Origin: Candidatus Poribacteria bacterium
GTDB lineage: Bacteria > Poribacteria > WGA-4E > WGA-3G
Assembly (NCBI GenBank): GCA_022821965.1
Contig: JAJECN010000046.1
Location: 1-64,000, forward strand
Length of the DNA stretch: 64,000 bases
Direction of reading: 5' to 3'
The position numbers and the translations under genes are program-made. The notes beneath the pieces are model-generated. The model saw only the letters and a list, made by a program, of their open reading frames with translations, did no database searches and was not told where the DNA came from. How positions within the stretch are numbered: position 1 is the stretch's first letter; each line of letters opens with the position of its first letter. Below are positions 133 through 8,097 of the stretch, piece after piece.

Positions 133-3100
133 GTGAAAAAAGAGAGAAATAGAATCCAATCTGCAACCGGCGTGTTCAAAAACCACACGTCCGAGATAAC
201 AAGGCGAAGGTTCGTACTGACACTCTTCGTCTTGAGTCTACTCGCCCCTTGTGTTGGGTGGGCGCAAGGTTTTGGTTTCGGAAAAAATAAAATCACAGGA
301 CAACGCTTCGATTGGCACATCCACCGGACAGAGCATTTTGACATCCACTACTATCCGAGCGAAGCGAAACTTGTGCCGATTATGGCTGCCATCGCTGAAG
401 AGGCGTATGAGCAACACAGCGAGGATTTCGAGCATGAGCTGCGAGACAGAACACCCCTCATTCTTTACAAATCCCACAAGGATTTCCAAGAAACTAACAT
501 CATCCTCCAAGAACTTCACGAAGGAATAGGAGGGTTCGCAGAACTCTTTAAGCACCGTATCGTTATACCCTTTACCGGATCCCTTGAAGCGTTTCGAGAG
601 GTAATTTACCACGAACTGATTCATATCTTCCAATACGACATTATCTATCAGAAACCGCATGCGCGTATCTATAGCGGCGAATTTCTCTATTCTCCGCCAA
701 TTTGGTTTATAGAGGGAATGGCGGACCATTTCGCTGAAGACAACGACGCAATCGGAGAAATGGTCATCCGCGATGCCAGCATGAATAACAACATTGTGCC
801 GCTACCGCAACTCCACAATTTCAACCGACTTAGCTCACCCTATATTGGGTATAAGTTGGGGCAATTAGCGGTCGCATATCTCACAGAAACGTACGGACGC
901 GAGAAAATCCCTGAGATTTTGCAAGGGTTACGACAGAGCCGCACAAAGGACATCAACCGTGTTTTCAGGGAAGTGCTCGGTGTAGAACTCGAAGAATTTG
1001 ATAAGGCGTGGCGGCAGACAGTCCGAAAACGTTACTGGCCCCTCATAGAGGACAGAGAACTGCCCGACCTCGTCGCGAAGAACCTTACCGAAAAATCGCG
1101 ATATTCCCACAACATCAAACCCGTCTGGTCACCAAGTGGCGATATTATCGCGTATGTTACAGGAAATGAAGGGTTTCTGGAGATTGTCCTGATGTCCGCC
1201 AAAACGGGTGAACGTATTGAGCGGGTCACTAAGCGGTTTTTCCGTGAAAAATATGAGGAGATCCGAACCGATTTCGGCGGTTTCGGGAGAAGCCTCGCGT
1301 GGGCACCTGATGGCGATAGGATCGCCTTCGTCGCCAGACATCACGATGCAAACTATCTCCTTGAAGTCAATATTTTGACTGAGGAACTGACGCAGTATTT
1401 CAAACTCGATTTCGATAACGTTTCCTCCCCAGACTATGATGGCAGCGGTGAACGGATCGTTTTTTCCGCACTAAAAGAGGGGCAAACAGATCTTTACATA
1501 ATCGAACTACTAACGGGTGAAGTGGACAGGCTCACCTTCGATCCATTCAATGATACGCATCCATCGTGGCATTCGACAACTGGCGAAATTATCTACGCCT
1601 CCGAGCGAGGGGCGAAAAATAGACTCGTGCTGATAAACCTTAACCGCGGGACAGAACGCGTGCTGACCGACGGCACCTATAATGCTATCAGTCCAAGTTG
1701 GACACCAGACGGAAAATCAATTCTTTTCTGCTCCGATAGCCAAGGTATTTACGATATACACAAACTCGAAATTAATCGTCAACTGTCAGCTAACAGTGGT
1801 CAGTTAAAAAAGGGTTCAGTCAAATCAGATCAATCTTTAACCGATGACCGACAACTGAAAACTGATAACTATTCCTCTGATAGTTTCCGACAGCCAACGG
1901 TCTCCGACAGCCACAGCAACGAAGAAGTCACATCCACTGAAAACGACAGCAAAGAATCTACGGGTTCTCCATCTTTAGAAGTTGAACTAACCCGTCTAAC
2001 CAATATCATGACAGGCTGTTTCAATCCGAGTTTGTCTCCAGACGGGAAACATCTTCTGTTCAGTGCCTACCAAAACGGGAAATACGATGTTTGTGTGATG
2101 GAGATTGGCAAAACTGTTGAGGAAAAAATTGAGGTTCCACCCGTAGCGGAACCGTCCGTAATCTTAACAGAGGAAGAAGAGGAGAATTATAGGATCGCTA
2201 AGCGAAAATACAGCACAAAATCCTCTTTCGCCTTAGATGCGATCTTCCCAGATTTCAGTTTCGGTGCGGATGGTATTCTCAGAAGCACGGTGCAAATCGT
2301 CGGCAGTGATATGTTAGGGAACCATCGCATCGGGGTCAGTGTGATGAACCAATCGAGTTACCTCGCACCGGACTTTATCGCACAATACGGATTTCTAACA
2401 CACCGAACTGACATCGGCGCGGTAATTTACAACTACCATGAATACCACATCTTGGGCGGCATACAGAGAAGACGAGGGATTCTACAGCGAATTACCGGAC
2501 TCGGGGCGTTTGTGAATTATCCGTTTGACAGATACCATCGACTTGACCTCAATTTTTCGATGTACACAAAGCCGTTTTCTTTCAACTTCCAAACAAGCGA
2601 ACCTTTGGATCCGTATGATGATAGAGGTCTACTGACAACAGGGTCCATAGCGTTTGTTGGAGATACAACGATGTGGCGGGAGTGGACTCCTTATACCGGT
2701 TCAAGGTATCGTATCGAACTTGAGCAATCTTTTCCAGCACTCGGCAGTCAACTTTCGATCACAAACGTTATTTTCGACGCGCGACGTTATTTCGGACTCG
2801 GCAGACGTCCTACGATTGCAGCACGGTTGTTACTCGGCGGTAGTTTCGGTAGAGACAAATCTTACTTTTATCTCGGTGGTATTGATACGCTACGAGGCTA
2901 TAATTATGAAGAATTGGTTGGAACACGTATTGGACTCCTCAACTTGGAAGTCCGTGTCCCCTTCATAGATGTGCTGCATTTCGGATGGCCCATCCAATGG
3001 ACACTCGGTGGAATACGCGGGATCGCCTTCGCGGATGTCGGAGGGGCTTGGTCAGATTGGCAATATGGACCAGAAAATCCTTTCAAGATCTTCGCCCGAG

Positions 3101-3264
3101 AAGAAAATCGTATTCAACTTGCCGATGTCAAAGCCTCAATCGGTGCTGGGCTTCGCTTACAACTCGGGCTGTTTTCGATAGATTTCGCCGCAGCGTGGCA
3201 TACAGACCTCTCTCGAGTGGAACCCGGTATGAAATACCATCTCGGACTGGGGCAATCTTTTTAA
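133..3264 (+). CDS. Secreted metalloprotease-like / TolB beta-propeller / BamA-like barrel fusion
   Basis: A 1043-residue protein with three parts. After a hydrophobic export signal (about residues 24-45), a gluzincin-like (peptidase MA type) domain carries HELIH (H160, E161, H164) and a downstream WFIEGMADHF segment in which E194 is the likely third zinc ligand. Residues about 330-700 hold six TolB/WD-type repeats of the form SPDGKxLxFSA. The last 300 residues resemble the Omp85/bacterial surface antigen barrel (LGGIDTLRGY followed by a region typical of the last strands). It probably sits in the outer membrane with the protease and propeller in the periplasm. The GTG start has no clear Shine-Dalgarno and lies just after a hairpin. 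Residues about 549-581 are encoded by a copy of a dispersed repeat (1778-1872), which inserts low-complexity sequence between two propeller blades. Substrate unknown. Confidence 0.85.
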   Translation: MKKERNRIQSATGVFKNHTSEITRRRFVLTLFVLSLLAPCVGWAQGFGFGKNKITGQRFDWHIHRTEHFDIHYYPSEAKLVPIMAAIAEEAYEQHSEDFEHELRDRTPLILYKSHKDFQETNIILQELHEGIGGFAELFKHRIVIPFTGSLEAFREVIYHELIHIFQYDIIYQKPHARIYSGEFLYSPPIWFIEGMADHFAEDNDAIGEMVIRDASMNNNIVPLPQLHNFNRLSSPYIGYKLGQLAVAYLTETYGREKIPEILQGLRQSRTKDINRVFREVLGVELEEFDKAWRQTVRKRYWPLIEDRELPDLVAKNLTEKSRYSHNIKPVWSPSGDIIAYVTGNEGFLEIVLMSAKTGERIERVTKRFFREKYEEIRTDFGGFGRSLAWAPDGDRIAFVARHHDANYLLEVNILTEELTQYFKLDFDNVSSPDYDGSGERIVFSALKEGQTDLYIIELLTGEVDRLTFDPFNDTHPSWHSTTGEIIYASERGAKNRLVLINLNRGTERVLTDGTYNAISPSWTPDGKSILFCSDSQGIYDIHKLEINRQLSANSGQLKKGSVKSDQSLTDDRQLKTDNYSSDSFRQPTVSDSHSNEEVTSTENDSKESTGSPSLEVELTRLTNIMTGCFNPSLSPDGKHLLFSAYQNGKYDVCVMEIGKTVEEKIEVPPVAEPSVILTEEEEENYRIAKRKYSTKSSFALDAIFPDFSFGADGILRSTVQIVGSDMLGNHRIGVSVMNQSSYLAPDFIAQYGFLTHRTDIGAVIYNYHEYHILGGIQRRRGILQRITGLGAFVNYPFDRYHRLDLNFSMYTKPFSFNFQTSEPLDPYDDRGLLTTGSIAFVGDTTMWREWTPYTGSRYRIELEQSFPALGSQLSITNVIFDARRYFGLGRRPTIAARLLLGGSFGRDKSYFYLGGIDTLRGYNYEELVGTRIGLLNLEVRVPFIDVLHFGWPIQWTLGGIRGIAFADVGGAWSDWQYGPENPFKIFAREENRIQLADVKASIGAGLRLQLGLFSIDFAAAWHTDLSRVEPGMKYHLGLGQSF
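1778..1872. repeat. Dispersed CAGTTGTCAGTT-type repeat inside a coding region
   Basis: This stretch repeats short motifs (CAACTGTCAGC, GTGGTCAGTT, ACCGATGACCGACAACTG, AACTGATAAC). The same motifs form the arms of intergenic elements at 6542-6647, 6921-7007, 13633-13719 and 33734-33890. Here it is read through in frame by the propeller fusion gene, adding residues rich in R, Q, L, S, D and N. Confidence 0.75.
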
Positions 3265-3352: not shown

Positions 3353-6300
3353 ATGGATTCACGAACCAAACGCTCTCTTATCACCATCGTCATCCTTGCA
3401 ATTATCGGGGGTTTAGGTGCCACTTGGGTCAACCTATATCCCGACTTTCTATGGTTTAAGGTGGTCGACTATTTCAGCGTCTACATCAAAATTCTCCAAA
3501 CAAAAATCTTCGTCGGTGTCATCGTTGGAATTTGCTATTTAGCAATCCTTCTGATAAATCTCGCCCTGATCTATCGACTCACACCAGAGCACCTCAGTCC
3601 TGCTTTTATGGGAGGTACCGAGTTTACAGGTGCTTCCACAAATAATCCCGGTGATACCCGAAAAATGATTTATGGCGTACTCATGCTCCTCGCGGTGCTT
3701 TTCAGCATCTTAATGGGTTACACAGCCAGTGACCGGTGGGAAATTTACCTACGCTACACCAACGCCGAAGACCTCACGTTCCGCGCTGCCACCCCGATTA
3801 TTGTCGAAGAGAGTCTCAACGCCACCGAAATCCCCGTCTCACAATTGGAACTCCAAGCGAAAAACATAAGAGTCGGCGATCAGATAAACGTACAGGTAAA
3901 TGGAACAAATCAGGACGCGACCATTGAAGCAGTGCTGGACAATGCCATCCGACTGAATACAGCCGTTCAGATAGAACCGGGGCAAAAAGCGTTCTTCACG
4001 TCTCCCGCACGCGACCCGATTTTCGACAAGGACATCTCCTACTACGTCTTCAAAATGCCAGTCGAGCGGTATGTTTGCGGGACACTTTTCGGTATATTCA
4101 TGCTGGTGACGATATTCGCAATTGTCATCTACTTTTTCCACGGATTAATCACAGGAGACACCAGCCAATTTCGATTCAGTCCACCTTTCAATGTGAAGGC
4201 GCATCTATTCACACTTGCAGGTATAACGCTTTTACTCCGAGCATGGAACTACCAGTTTGCCATGTTCGACTTGCTCTACGCCACAAACGATGTCGTCCGT
4301 GGCGGTGGTGGATACGCTGCAATGAAGGCGCGCCTCCCTATACTGTATATCATGATGGTGCTCACGGTTTTATGCGCTATTGTCTTCATCATCAGTATCT
4401 TCTTGAAGCGTAACACCTTCGCTTTCGGCGGACTTGCCGTGTTCATAATTGCTGGAATCCTCGGACAAGTTTACCCGGTCGCCATACAAAGATGGCAGGT
4501 TGAACCCAGAAAACAGGTGTTAGAGGCAGACTATATCAACTATAACATCAAAGCAACACTCCAAGCTTACGGCTTAGCCGAGAACACTGTGACGGAGGAG
4601 GAATATCCACTCACAGAGCAACTGAGTTATGACGACATAAGAAGCCCCGAAAACGCTCCTGTCTTCAATAGCATTCGCCTCTGGGATTGGCGACCCCTAC
4701 GCAGAACCTTCCGCCAACTCCAAGAACTCCGTACACAGTACGATTTCAATGATGTTGACATTGATCGCTACGTCGTTGACGGTGAAATTCGACAAGTGAT
4801 GCTGTCCGGACGGGAACTCAATATCAACGAACTTCCCATGGAAATCAGAAACGATTGGTACAAGCAAACCTATACCTATACACACGGATATGGTGCCGTT
4901 GTAAGCCCTGTTAACGAGATTGAGAACGGCAAACCCAATATGTACATTCAAGGATTGCCACCGATCGACTACAGCGAACAGTGGGAGCACCGGTTCAGCG
5001 ACACGCCGGGTCCACGTATCTACTACGGTGAACGGACAGATCGTTATGTTATCGTACACCCAGAACGGAGCCAAGGGCTTGAGTTCGACTACCCACAAGA
5101 AGGACAGCAGTATGCCGAATATGCCTACCAAGGGAAGGGTGGTGTCCAACTCAACTCTTTCTGGCGTAAAATGGTGTACATGCTCAAATTCAACAATGAG
5201 ATTAACTTCGTCTTACCGGGTGAAATTTCGTCGACCAGCAAGATCCTCTATGAACGGAACATCAAAAGACGAATTCAGAAAATCGCGCCTTTCTTGCGAT
5301 ACGACGGTGACCCCTATATCATCCTCCATAAAGGTAGATTGGTCTGGATGATTGATGCCTATACGATCACACATCGGTATCCGTATTCGGTGTCAATGAA
5401 AGAATTCGTCGGTGAGCGGAGGCAACAAGCCGCAAATACGCAACGAGACGGTGAACCGTGGGGGAACTACATCCGAAACTCCGTTAAAGTCATCCTCGAT
5501 GCTTACGATGGCACAGTCGATTTTTATATTATGGAACGGGAACAGGATCCAATTGTGGAATGTTATCGCAAAATCTTCCCAGACCTTTTCAAGTCGTTTG
5601 CGGAGATGCCTGATGAACTCAAGGCACACATTCGATATCCAACATCTATGTTTCTGATCCAAGCCCGCGTCTATCAAGATTACCACATGAAAGATCCGGT
5701 AACCTTCTACGCAGGCGAAGATAAATGGGAGATTGGCAGAGAACTCTATGACAATACAGATGCCCAAACACGACAAGTGGCACAACAGCCAAGAAGTCCA
5801 TTTACCCCACAACAACCGACAGTTCAACGCTCATCAGTAGAAGGACAACCCGTTGAACCTTACTATGTCATTATCAGGCTACCGGGGCTGGAAAACCCCG
5901 AATTCATGTTGATGCTGCCCTATACACCGTTCAAGAAACCGAATCTCACCGCATGGCTCGCCGCGCGATGTGATCTGCCCCAATATGGACAGCTCCTTGT
6001 CTACCGATTTCCGAAAGGGAAACAGGTCGCAGGTCCCATGCAGGTGGAGAACTTTATTAGTCAAGAACCGGAGATTTCGCAGCAGATTAGCCTTTGGAAC
6101 ACGCAGGGATCCCGAGTTTTACGCGGAAATCTGTTGATTCTGCCAATGAACAACTCCCTGCTCTATGTTGAACCTATCTACATACAATCCGAAGACGAAA
6201 CAACCGCTATTCCTGAATTGAGACGGGTCGTCATCGGATACGGAAACGAGGTCGTCTGGGGTGAAAGTCTTGATGAGGCACTTATTAAGATGTTCGGACA

Positions 6301-6520
6301 GGGAACGCGATTTCAGACCCCTGCCACGGCTACAACTGACGATCTAACTGCAGCCGATCCGGGCACAGCGCAAATCTCATTACGAGGGCTTGTTGAACAA
6401 GCAAACCGCTATTTCAATCAGGCACAAAGCGCACAACGCACCGGCGATTGGGCAGAATACGGACGCTCTCTCCAACTTTTAGAAGAAACTTTACGTCAAC
6501 TTGAAGGAAATACACAATGA
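3353..6520 (+). CDS. UPF0182 family membrane protein
   Basis: A 1055-residue protein with the layout of the UPF0182 (COG1615) family. About seven membrane segments lie in the first 375 residues (roughly 9-29, 51-75, 105-125, 242-265, 281-302, 327-350, 355-375). A large soluble region follows, with the family-typical stretches SIRLWDWRPLRRTFRQLQ, YGERTDRYVIVHP, FLRYDGDPYIILHKGRLVW and FMLMLPYTPFKKPNLTAWLA. Function is not established for the family. The C-terminal 40 residues are predicted helical and polar. The ATG follows CCGGAGGTTAAC with a rather long spacer. A proline/glutamine-rich linker interrupts the soluble part near residues 800-825. It stands alone between the protease fusion and the small TGA-containing gene. 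Confidence 0.88.
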   Translation: MDSRTKRSLITIVILAIIGGLGATWVNLYPDFLWFKVVDYFSVYIKILQTKIFVGVIVGICYLAILLINLALIYRLTPEHLSPAFMGGTEFTGASTNNPGDTRKMIYGVLMLLAVLFSILMGYTASDRWEIYLRYTNAEDLTFRAATPIIVEESLNATEIPVSQLELQAKNIRVGDQINVQVNGTNQDATIEAVLDNAIRLNTAVQIEPGQKAFFTSPARDPIFDKDISYYVFKMPVERYVCGTLFGIFMLVTIFAIVIYFFHGLITGDTSQFRFSPPFNVKAHLFTLAGITLLLRAWNYQFAMFDLLYATNDVVRGGGGYAAMKARLPILYIMMVLTVLCAIVFIISIFLKRNTFAFGGLAVFIIAGILGQVYPVAIQRWQVEPRKQVLEADYINYNIKATLQAYGLAENTVTEEEYPLTEQLSYDDIRSPENAPVFNSIRLWDWRPLRRTFRQLQELRTQYDFNDVDIDRYVVDGEIRQVMLSGRELNINELPMEIRNDWYKQTYTYTHGYGAVVSPVNEIENGKPNMYIQGLPPIDYSEQWEHRFSDTPGPRIYYGERTDRYVIVHPERSQGLEFDYPQEGQQYAEYAYQGKGGVQLNSFWRKMVYMLKFNNEINFVLPGEISSTSKILYERNIKRRIQKIAPFLRYDGDPYIILHKGRLVWMIDAYTITHRYPYSVSMKEFVGERRQQAANTQRDGEPWGNYIRNSVKVILDAYDGTVDFYIMEREQDPIVECYRKIFPDLFKSFAEMPDELKAHIRYPTSMFLIQARVYQDYHMKDPVTFYAGEDKWEIGRELYDNTDAQTRQVAQQPRSPFTPQQPTVQRSSVEGQPVEPYYVIIRLPGLENPEFMLMLPYTPFKKPNLTAWLAARCDLPQYGQLLVYRFPKGKQVAGPMQVENFISQEPEISQQISLWNTQGSRVLRGNLLILPMNNSLLYVEPIYIQSEDETTAIPELRRVVIGYGNEVVWGESLDEALIKMFGQGTRFQTPATATTDDLTAADPGTAQISLRGLVEQANRYFNQAQSAQRTGDWAEYGRSLQLLEETLRQLEGNTQ

Positions 6521-6541: not shown

Positions 6542-6647
6542 GTTATCAGTTTTCGGTTTTCAGTTTTCAGTTAAGAGACTCTTGTGGCAGTTGCATAAGT
6601 TTTGTCCGCCACAAACCAGTAACCGATAACCGACAACTGACAACTAT
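6542..6647. repeat. Dispersed inverted-repeat element, copy A
   Basis: The left arm begins GTTATCAGTTTTCGG. The right arm ends AACCGATAACCGACAACTG, roughly the reverse complement. Between them, CTTGTGGCAGTTGC and CCGCCACAA form an inner hairpin. It fills the gap between the UPF0182 gene and the next ribosome binding site. Confidence 0.75.
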
Positions 6648-6664
6648 TAAAGGAGGTGAAATAG

Positions 6665-6910
6665 ATGGCTCTCGATTGGAAACCGCGTCACCGAGATATG
6701 ATTATCGGCGATATCCCATGGTTAGCCAGAATCAGCGACAAAGCCAGTGCAAAACTGCAGGGTATCCTCGGTGAATATATCTACCCGTGACCACAAGATA
6801 AGCTGTTCCTGGAGGAACACGAGATAAGTGCTGAGGCATTCACTGAGATGGTAAAAAATAACCCCTCAGACGATGAGATGATCGCGGCAATGAAGAAATT
6901 GAATGGTTAG
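6665..6910 (+). CDS. DUF5069-like small protein, candidate selenoprotein (in-frame UGA at codon 42)
   Basis: An 81-codon frame starts at ATG 6665 behind a near-perfect ribosome binding site (AAAGGAGGTG, 8-base spacer) and ends at TAG 6908-6910. It is interrupted only by TGA at 6788-6790 (codon 42). The product resembles DUF5069: PWLARISDKASAKLQG, then LGEYIYP-(UGA)-PQDKLFLEE, then an EAF..MV helix and a final D-D-E-M helix. As I recall the family, Cys-Pro occupies this YxCPxD position, so UGA stands where Cys is expected. Nineteen bases after the UGA is a 6-bp stem with a UGGA loop (6804-6819), which fits the bacterial SECIS consensus. Both halves keep family-like sequence with no other lesion. 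The alternative is a recent Cys-to-stop mutation. Function of the family is unknown. Confidence 0.65.
6804..6819 (+). promoter_or_regulatory. SECIS-like hairpin downstream of in-frame UGA
   Basis: TGTTCC (6804-6809) pairs perfectly with GGAACA (6814-6819) around the loop TGGA (6810-6813). The loop begins 19 bases after the UGA and has G in its second position. This meets the published general bacterial SECIS description (apical loop 16-37 nt after UGA, a G among the first two loop bases, stem of at least 4 bp). The stem does not extend further, so thermodynamic support is modest. Confidence 0.5.
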
Positions 6911-6920
6911 TTTAAGAGGT

Positions 6921-7007
6921 GTCGGTTATCGGTTGTCAGTCCAGAGTGTGCTGTGGTCGTTACAAACGTTTGCAACAACCACACAAGTAACTGACAGCCG
7001 ATAGCCA
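6921..7007. repeat. Dispersed inverted-repeat element, copy B
   Basis: The left arm GTCGGTTATCGGTTGTCAGT and the right arm ACTGACAGCCGATAGCC are near reverse complements. The centre holds a second hairpin (TGTGGTCGTTACAAACG with CGTTTGCAACAACCACA). It lies between the TGA-containing gene and pheA and could fold into a long, terminator-like structure without a U-tract. Confidence 0.75.
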
Positions 7008-7029
7008 CGCTAAGGAATATTAGAAAGAA

Positions 7030-8097
7030 TTGGACTTAACAAAGTACCGAGACCAGATTAATGAGATTGACGACCAAATTTTAGCACTGCTACAGAAACG
7101 AGCTGATATTTCCAAGCAGGTCGGTGCTGTGAAAGCAGGGATAGACGATGTTCAGGTCTATGTTCCGCATCGGCAGAAACAGATTATTGAACGCTTGAAG
7201 GCGCAGAACCACGGTGAATTTCCTGAAGCCGCGCTTGAAGCAATCTGGACTGAGATTCTATCTGCCTCCCGTTCCTTACAGGATCCAGAACGGGTCGCCT
7301 TCCTCGGGCCTGTTGGTAGTTTCGGTCACTTAGCGGCACTATCTCATTTCGGTGCGTCAACTGAGATGATCCCTATCAGTCCGCAGACCGACATTTTTAC
7401 GGAGGTTGAAGCTGGTAGAGCGGACTACGGTGTGGTGGCTATTGAAAATTCAGCACAAGGCACTGTTCGTGATGTTTTGGAACGCTTCCAACGCACGCCG
7501 TTGTGGATTTGTGCCGAGACCTTTCAACCGATAAAACAGCACCTTTTATCAAAGTCACCGCTTTCAGAAATTCGGTGTGTCTACTCACATCCGCAACCCT
7601 TCGCGCAATGTAAGACATGGCTAAAGCGACATCTCAGTAATGCTGAACAGATTGAGGTTGTTAGTACGTCTGAAGCAGCACAACGCGCTGCACAAGAACT
7701 GTCAGCAGCCGCTATTGCGAGTGAACTCGCAGGCAAAATCTATGAGGTTCCAATCGTCGCCAATACCATTATGGATGAACCTGATAACACAACTCGCTTC
7801 TTTGTCATCGGAAGACACATGCCAGATCCAAGTGGACACGATCGGACCTCGATGTTCTTCGCAATTCGAGACAAGGTTGGTGCCCTGTACGAAGCCCTCA
7901 GCATTTTAAAGAAAGCAGAGCTGAATTTGAGTTATTTAGAATCTTTGCCATCGCGAGCCGGACTGTGGGAGTATGTCTTTTTTGTTGAGATGGAAGGTCA
8001 TATTGCCGACGAACGCGTCATCGTGGCACTTGAGCAGCTTGAAGAATTGTGTCGCAATGTCAACGTTCTCGGATCTTATCCGCGCGGGACTTGTTAA
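7030..8097 (+). CDS. pheA: Bifunctional chorismate mutase / prephenate dehydratase (P-protein)
   Basis: A 355-residue cytoplasmic enzyme that converts chorismate to prephenate and on to phenylpyruvate for phenylalanine synthesis. Residues about 1-85 are an AroQ-type chorismate mutase (INEIDDQILALLQKRADIS). Residues about 94-270 are prephenate dehydratase, with FLGPVGSFGHLAA, IENSAQGTVRDVLE and NTTRFFVIG (the TRF catalytic motif). The C-terminus is an ACT regulatory domain with YLESLPSR in place of the common ESRPS phenylalanine-binding motif, so feedback inhibition by Phe is likely but not certain. Start is TTG at 7030 after a weak AGAAAGAA. Its TAA stop overlaps the ATG of queG (TAATG), so the two are probably co-translated. 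Confidence 0.93.
   Translation: MDLTKYRDQINEIDDQILALLQKRADISKQVGAVKAGIDDVQVYVPHRQKQIIERLKAQNHGEFPEAALEAIWTEILSASRSLQDPERVAFLGPVGSFGHLAALSHFGASTEMIPISPQTDIFTEVEAGRADYGVVAIENSAQGTVRDVLERFQRTPLWICAETFQPIKQHLLSKSPLSEIRCVYSHPQPFAQCKTWLKRHLSNAEQIEVVSTSEAAQRAAQELSAAAIASELAGKIYEVPIVANTIMDEPDNTTRFFVIGRHMPDPSGHDRTSMFFAIRDKVGALYEALSILKKAELNLSYLESLPSRAGLWEYVFFVEMEGHIADERVIVALEQLEELCRNVNVLGSYPRGTC

What the first reader, a model, noticed from the sequence alone, without database searches (positions are those of the whole stretch)
6665..6910. Candidate selenoprotein: DUF5069-like protein with UGA at the conserved Cys position and a SECIS-like hairpin
Seen: a strong ribosome binding site, one 81-codon frame, a single in-frame TGA (6788-6790) inside YIYP-(UGA)-PQD, and a 6-bp stem with UGGA loop starting 19 nt after it. 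Known: bacterial SECIS elements lie just after UGA with a small G-containing loop, and DUF5069 proteins, as I recall them, have Cys-Pro there. Inference: Sec is inserted. If so, it gives the otherwise unknown DUF5069 family a redox-type active site.
Basis: partly seen in the sequence, partly recalled or inferred. Interest (0 to 1): 0.9.

Follow-up and report, generated by a model that had tools for sequence, protein, structure and literature searches.

The report
New small selenoprotein family (DUF5069)
This 81-codon gene of a sponge-associated bacterium (Candidatus Poribacteria) almost certainly reads its internal UGA stop codon as the rare amino acid selenocysteine, which makes the uncharacterised protein family DUF5069 a selenoprotein family that is missing from a 2026 inventory of such families.

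Summary
Frame 6665-6910 has a strong ribosome-binding site and one in-frame UGA (6788-6790, codon 42), followed by a hairpin whose UGGA loop lies 19 nt after the UGA. The host genome (Candidatus Poribacteria) carries tRNA-Sec next to selB, plus selA and a selD that itself has an in-frame UGA. The UGA is present in 71 Poribacteria genomes and in 36 of 43 Latescibacterota-group genomes with the gene; all other short-form members read have Cys there, as does the solved DUF5069 structure 3omd. Both sides of the UGA are under strong purifying selection (dN/dS about 0.05 and 0.07-0.09). The only frozen degenerate codons are 48-51 (TTC-CTG-GAG-GAA), the hairpin's inner stem and loop. Its outer pairs covary: the basal core pair is G-C, C-G or A-U and is never broken in 36 distinct sequences. 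The hairpin fits all four published bacterial SECIS rules. DUF5069 is absent from a May 2026 inventory of 119 prokaryotic selenoprotein families. I conclude that Sec is inserted (0.96). The biochemical role is not shown; my best guess is selenol redox chemistry at a helix N-terminus in a small helical domain without a conserved second Cys.

The parts
6650..6659 (+). ribosome-binding site AAGGAGGTGA, 5 nt before the ATG
   Evidence: read directly; similar AGGAGG stretches precede the start in relatives
6665..6910 (+). selenoprotein gene, 81 codons with UGA at codon 42, ending in TAG 6908-6910; short DUF5069 protein
   Evidence: orthologues in 77 Poribacteria genomes; dN/dS 0.047 before and 0.072-0.087 after the UGA
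6788..6790 (+). UGA codon read as selenocysteine (residue 42)
   Evidence: UGA in all 107 distinct UGA-type coding sequences compared, Cys codon in all other short-form members read; Cys in PDB 3omd
6804..6819 (+). bacterial SECIS hairpin UGUUCC-UGGA-GGAACA (loop 6810-6813)
   Evidence: frozen codons 48-51; covariation; meets the four published bSECIS constraints; fold

Best explanation
window:6665-6910 is a functional selenoprotein gene. SelB carrying Sec-tRNA-Sec recognises the UGUUCC-UGGA-GGAACA hairpin that follows codon 42 and directs selenocysteine insertion at UGA 6788-6790, giving an 81-residue protein. The protein is a short, single-domain DUF5069 member in which Sec takes the place of a conserved Cys. 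Most likely the Sec is the reactive residue: it is predicted to sit immediately before a helix that starts at the next residue, where a selenolate would be stabilised, and there is no conserved second Cys, which favours a one-Sec reaction (peroxide or disulfide chemistry) completed by an external thiol. Shown by comparative sequence evidence: translation past the UGA, the SECIS, the Sec/Cys exchange and the presence of the machinery. Inferred: the selenol redox role (about 0.5). Not shown: substrate, and Sec in the purified protein.
For: Complete Sec machinery in the same genome: tRNA-Sec beside selB, selA, and a selD with UGA in a UxxK motif. UGA in 71 Poribacteria and 36 Latescibacterota-group genomes; Cys in 6 and 7 others of those groups and in 7 Bacillota loci. 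Purifying selection on both sides of the UGA. Codons 48-51 are the only degenerate codons frozen at the nucleotide level. Compensatory changes: basal core pair GC 27, CG 8, AU 1, never unpaired; 35 doubly changed cells against 15.2 in shuffles, 0 of 500 as high; covariation score 0.311 against at most 0.116 when slid. In L141 a one-codon insertion moves the hairpin and the stem is again fully paired by different bases. Among UGA-bearing Poribacteria only four genomes lack a SelB hit, all 73-83% complete. Position of Sec before a helix; invariant neighbours.
Against: No experiment. The hairpin energy is ordinary against shuffles. Not every UGA-bearing genome yields SelB (G034, G052, G057, G064, G102, G105), though the four of known completeness are incomplete MAGs. 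For the redox role: no conserved second Cys, no fold match to a known oxidoreductase, and no conserved neighbour genes across phyla.
Confidence: 0.96

Rival explanations
1. The gene is a pseudogene or carries an assembly error: a sense codon became a stop and the downstream half is decaying.
For: A single in-frame stop in an otherwise normal frame, seen alone, would look like this.
Against: The same UGA, never UAA or UAG, is found at the same codon in over 100 independently assembled genomes; downstream dN/dS is 0.07-0.09.
Confidence: 0.01
2. UGA is read through as Trp or another amino acid by a changed genetic code or a near-cognate tRNA, without Sec.
For: UGA is read as sense at this site.
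Against: UGA still ends other genes here, e.g. the neighbouring gene 3353-6520; the only other residue at this codon is Cys; a UGA-linked hairpin is conserved and the Sec machinery is present.
Confidence: 0.02
3. Sec is inserted, but its role is not redox catalysis: the protein binds or carries a metal, metalloid or selenium species through Sec/Cys42.
For: No conserved resolving Cys and a small helical domain; several known selenoproteins are metal-binding or transport proteins (list in PMC13188914).
Against: Only one Sec/Cys and no invariant His; the invariant residues around it are R22, D25, K26, Y38 and D45.
Confidence: 0.3
4. The conserved hairpin is a regulatory element or the UGA a programmed stop giving a 41-residue product, with only occasional read-through.
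For: UGA recoding is partial in general (known for E. coli; PMC4513850 reports 30-40%, abstract shown).
Against: Selection on the residues after the UGA is about as strong as before it, and Cys-form orthologues make the full-length protein without any stop.
Confidence: 0.03

Closest known systems
DUF5069 family (Pfam PF16798), solved member 3omd from Leptospirillum rubarum
   Same: Same domain by sequence (50.8 bits; phmmer 1.6e-10) and by predicted fold (TM 0.84 on the query); Cys at the Sec column in 3omd (YNCPLD).
   Different: The window protein is about half the length (81 against 145 residues), covers profile positions 4-75 of 133, and has Sec; 3omd has Cys and unknown function.
Bacterial selenoproteins with bSECIS (119 families in PMC13188914)
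   Same: UGA followed by a short G-loop hairpin, SelB, tRNA-Sec, SelA, SelD, Cys homologues.
   Different: DUF5069 is not in the inventory; the domain is helical and not thioredoxin-like, and there is no CxxU or UxxC motif.
Sec-type SelD of the same genome (L025)
   Same: Also a UGA-containing gene; supports that recoding is used elsewhere in this genome.
   Different: Unrelated protein family, and a different sequence after the UGA.

Membership tests
Bacterial selenoprotein | Sec machinery (tRNA-Sec, SelB, SelA, SelD) in the same genome | tested here: met
Bacterial selenoprotein | in-frame UGA aligned with Cys in homologues | tested here: met
Bacterial selenoprotein | bSECIS: 3-9 nt loop, 4-16 bp stem, G in the first two loop positions, 16-37 nt from UGA, energy at most -7.5 kcal/mol | tested here: met
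   loop of 4, stem of 6, UGGA, 19 nt, -9.2 (53 nt) or -7.8 (45 nt) kcal/mol (rules); covariation
Bacterial selenoprotein | Sec found in the protein | not testable with these tools
   needs 75Se labelling or mass spectrometry
DUF5069 (PF16798) | profile score over the curated cut-off | tested here: met
   50.8 bits against 27, profile positions 4-75 of 133
DUF5069 (PF16798) | full domain length (133 profile positions) | tested here: not met
   the C-terminal part is absent from this whole short clade, 80-94 residues; it is a short subfamily
Thioredoxin-fold selenoproteins | thioredoxin-like fold with CxxU or UxxC | tested here: not met
   four-helix model without CxxC-type motif; only 3omd matches with E below 0.001, and the Dsb hit 7pq8 is chance-level (E 5.1, prob 0.02)

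The most novel reading that the evidence does not exclude
Short DUF5069 proteins are a new class of selenoenzyme: a helical, non-thioredoxin domain of 80-94 residues with one Sec and no conserved resolving Cys, maintained across Poribacteria and Latescibacterota, with a chemistry not represented among known selenoproteins.
Probability: 0.4. Interest if true: 0.78.

Novelty: new member of a known kind. Interest (0 to 1): 0.62.

Why it matters
It adds a family to the prokaryotic selenoproteome with unusually clean comparative evidence. It marks one residue as functionally central in a domain of unknown function. It also gives a concrete protein to connect with the reported enrichment of selA and selB in sponge symbionts (PMC5649159). 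Standard gene callers would be expected to truncate such genes at codon 41 or miss them, so the family is probably under-annotated in these phyla.

Tried and rejected
Pseudogene, assembly error, code change and programmed stop: rejected (see rivals). Hairpin energy as evidence: not usable, z = -0.16. Rfam scan of 6600-7000: nothing at E up to 1. Gene neighbourhood as a guide to function: in Poribacteria the gene 3353-6520 and a PheA-like gene (7030-8097) flank the locus in most loci read, but relatives of these window neighbours were not found around the Latescibacterota-group or Limnochordia loci, so context gives no functional clue (no family search was run on the neighbours, their names are from my own reading). 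Fold search: only 3omd, itself of unknown function. The UGA gene in an 'Alphaproteobacteria' MAG (L124) is probably misbinned: 20 kb contig, no SelB found in that genome, and the only hit among 398 genomes of its phylum.

Full report
Observation. The frame at 6665-6910 is as described: ATG 6665, TAG 6908-6910, one TGA at 6788-6790, preceded by AAGGAGGTGA at 6650-6659. The hairpin UGUUCC-UGGA-GGAACA lies at 6804-6819; the loop, not the stem, starts 19 nt after the UGA. With U read as Cys the protein scores 50.8 bits with PF16798 (DUF5069; cut-off 27) but covers only the first half of the profile.

Host. The nearest loci are from Candidatus Poribacteria MAGs. The window's own genome (G000, 5.69 Mb, 95% complete) has a tRNA-Sec gene (78 bits; ARAGORN also calls it tRNA-SeC with anticodon TCA), selB directly beside it on contig C20, selA on C54, and a selD on C15 with an in-frame TGA. 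The selD UGA reads KCAG-U-ASK, which fits the UxxK motif listed for Sec-type SelD. UGA is also an ordinary stop here: the neighbouring gene 3353-6520 ends in TGA.

Distribution of Sec and Cys. Of 98 genomes searched around the host, 71 Poribacteria genomes have the gene with exactly one internal TGA; for those fetched as loci the TGA was read at codon 42, for the rest I rely on the search's stop count. Six genomes, all in one family (f5), have it without a stop, and those read Cys. In the phylum that holds the Latescibacterota hits, 43 of 64 genomes have the gene, 36 with TGA and 7 with Cys, all read. Seven Bacillota loci (three named Limnochordia) carry Cys. PDB entry 3omd has Cys at the aligned residue. 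No short-form member that I read had anything but Sec or Cys there. The host's longer DUF5069 proteins lack Cys at this column, so the Sec/Cys trait marks part of the Pfam family. A tree of 64 proteins, with the Sec column masked, needs at least four changes between Sec and Cys (bootstrap range 3-5); the alignment is short and many forks are unresolved.

Selection. Over 800 pairs of UGA-type sequences, dN/dS is 0.047 before the UGA and 0.087 after it, or 0.072 without codons 48-51 (the script stopped with a division by zero after printing these values, because codons 48-51 held no synonymous change). Translation past the UGA is therefore under selection.

SECIS. Among 107 distinct UGA-type coding sequences the only degenerate sense codons with more than 95% one synonymous form are 48-51: TTC 107 of 107, CTG 107 of 107, GAG 106 of 106, GAA 104 of 104, although elsewhere in these genes TTC is 50% of Phe codons and CTG 23% of Leu codons. 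These codons form the inner stem and loop. The flanking pairs covary: the basal core pair is GC in 27, CG in 8 and AU in 1 of 36 distinct sequences and never broken; the next pair is UA, AU, GU or GC with 5 exceptions. Cells with both sides changed number 35 against 15.2 in shuffles (0 of 500 reach it), and sliding one strand lowers the covariation score from 0.311 to 0.116 or less. Shuffles do not correct for relatedness, but the slid control does. In L141 a one-codon insertion shifts the hairpin by 3 nt and the stem there is GTATTCC/GGAATAC, again fully paired. In L166-L168 the protein motif changes (FLDG, FLEG) while the stem is largely kept through wobble and new outer pairs; L166 has one broken inner pair. 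The Cys homologue L157 keeps the stem but has UACA in the loop, which looks like a relic of a SECIS. The window's element meets all four published bSECIS rules (PMC13188914). Folding energy alone would not have singled it out.

Gene and machinery. Of the UGA-bearing Poribacteria only G034, G052, G057 and G064 lack a SelB hit, and they are 73-83% complete; G073 and G077 lack both the gene and SelB. Five of six Cys-form Poribacteria genomes keep SelB, so the Cys form is not simply a result of losing the machinery. Of 15 other genomes tested (Latescibacterota-group, Limnochordia and L124), 12 have SelB.

Protein and likely action. Invariant residues over 35 diverse members are P7, R8, G15, R22, D25, K26, A29, Y38, U/C42, D45, F59 and D69. 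The AlphaFold2 model (pLDDT 86, pTM 0.72) has four helices, with the Sec immediately before the helix that begins at P43. Its only good PDB match is 3omd, of unknown function. A selenocysteine at a helix N-terminus is a typical setting for a reactive selenolate (general knowledge). No second Cys is conserved, so a one-Sec reaction completed by an external thiol, or metal or metalloid binding, are the plausible modes. Neither is shown.

Novelty. The May 2026 inventory of 119 prokaryotic selenoprotein families does not contain DUF5069 or PF16798. No paper in the held library mentions DUF5069 or PF16798, and no NCBIfam model matches. Subscription papers and supplements are not covered, including the 2026 groundwater survey cited in that review. 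A study of sponge symbionts noted that SelA and SelB co-occur in most symbiont bins but not in their relatives. I rate this a new family of a known kind.

Noticed in passing
window 6542-6645, 6917-7008 and 1839-1863: The gene is flanked by related short repeats (inverted arms 6621-6638 and 6917-6934, 94% complementary; a 20-nt palindrome at 6952-6983). A near copy (2 mismatches in 25) lies at 1839-1863 inside the open frame 133-3264, so these repeats can sit in frame within a coding sequence.
   Followed up: partly
G000:C57:4621-5868 (L001-L003) and G000:C46:42405-42719 (L004): The host also has a protein with three tandem DUF5069 domains (428-codon open frame) and a single-domain one; the copies read have no Cys at the Sec column.
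   Followed up: partly
L157 (G160:C79): A Cys-form homologue that keeps the hairpin stem CGCTTCC/GGAAGTG but has TACA instead of TGGA in the loop: a likely relic SECIS after a Sec-to-Cys change.
   Followed up: partly
L025 around 1531 (G000:C15): The host's selD is itself a UGA gene, KCAG-U-ASK.
   Followed up: partly
L124 (JAJDWH010000054.1, G105): A UGA-form gene in a MAG labelled Alphaproteobacteria without a SelB hit; the only hit in 398 genomes of its phylum, so probably misbinned.
   Followed up: yes
G072, G076, G078-G081 (Poribacteria family f5): These genomes use Cys at codon 42 although five of the six have SelB: a Sec/Cys exchange in a lineage that still has the Sec machinery.
   Followed up: partly
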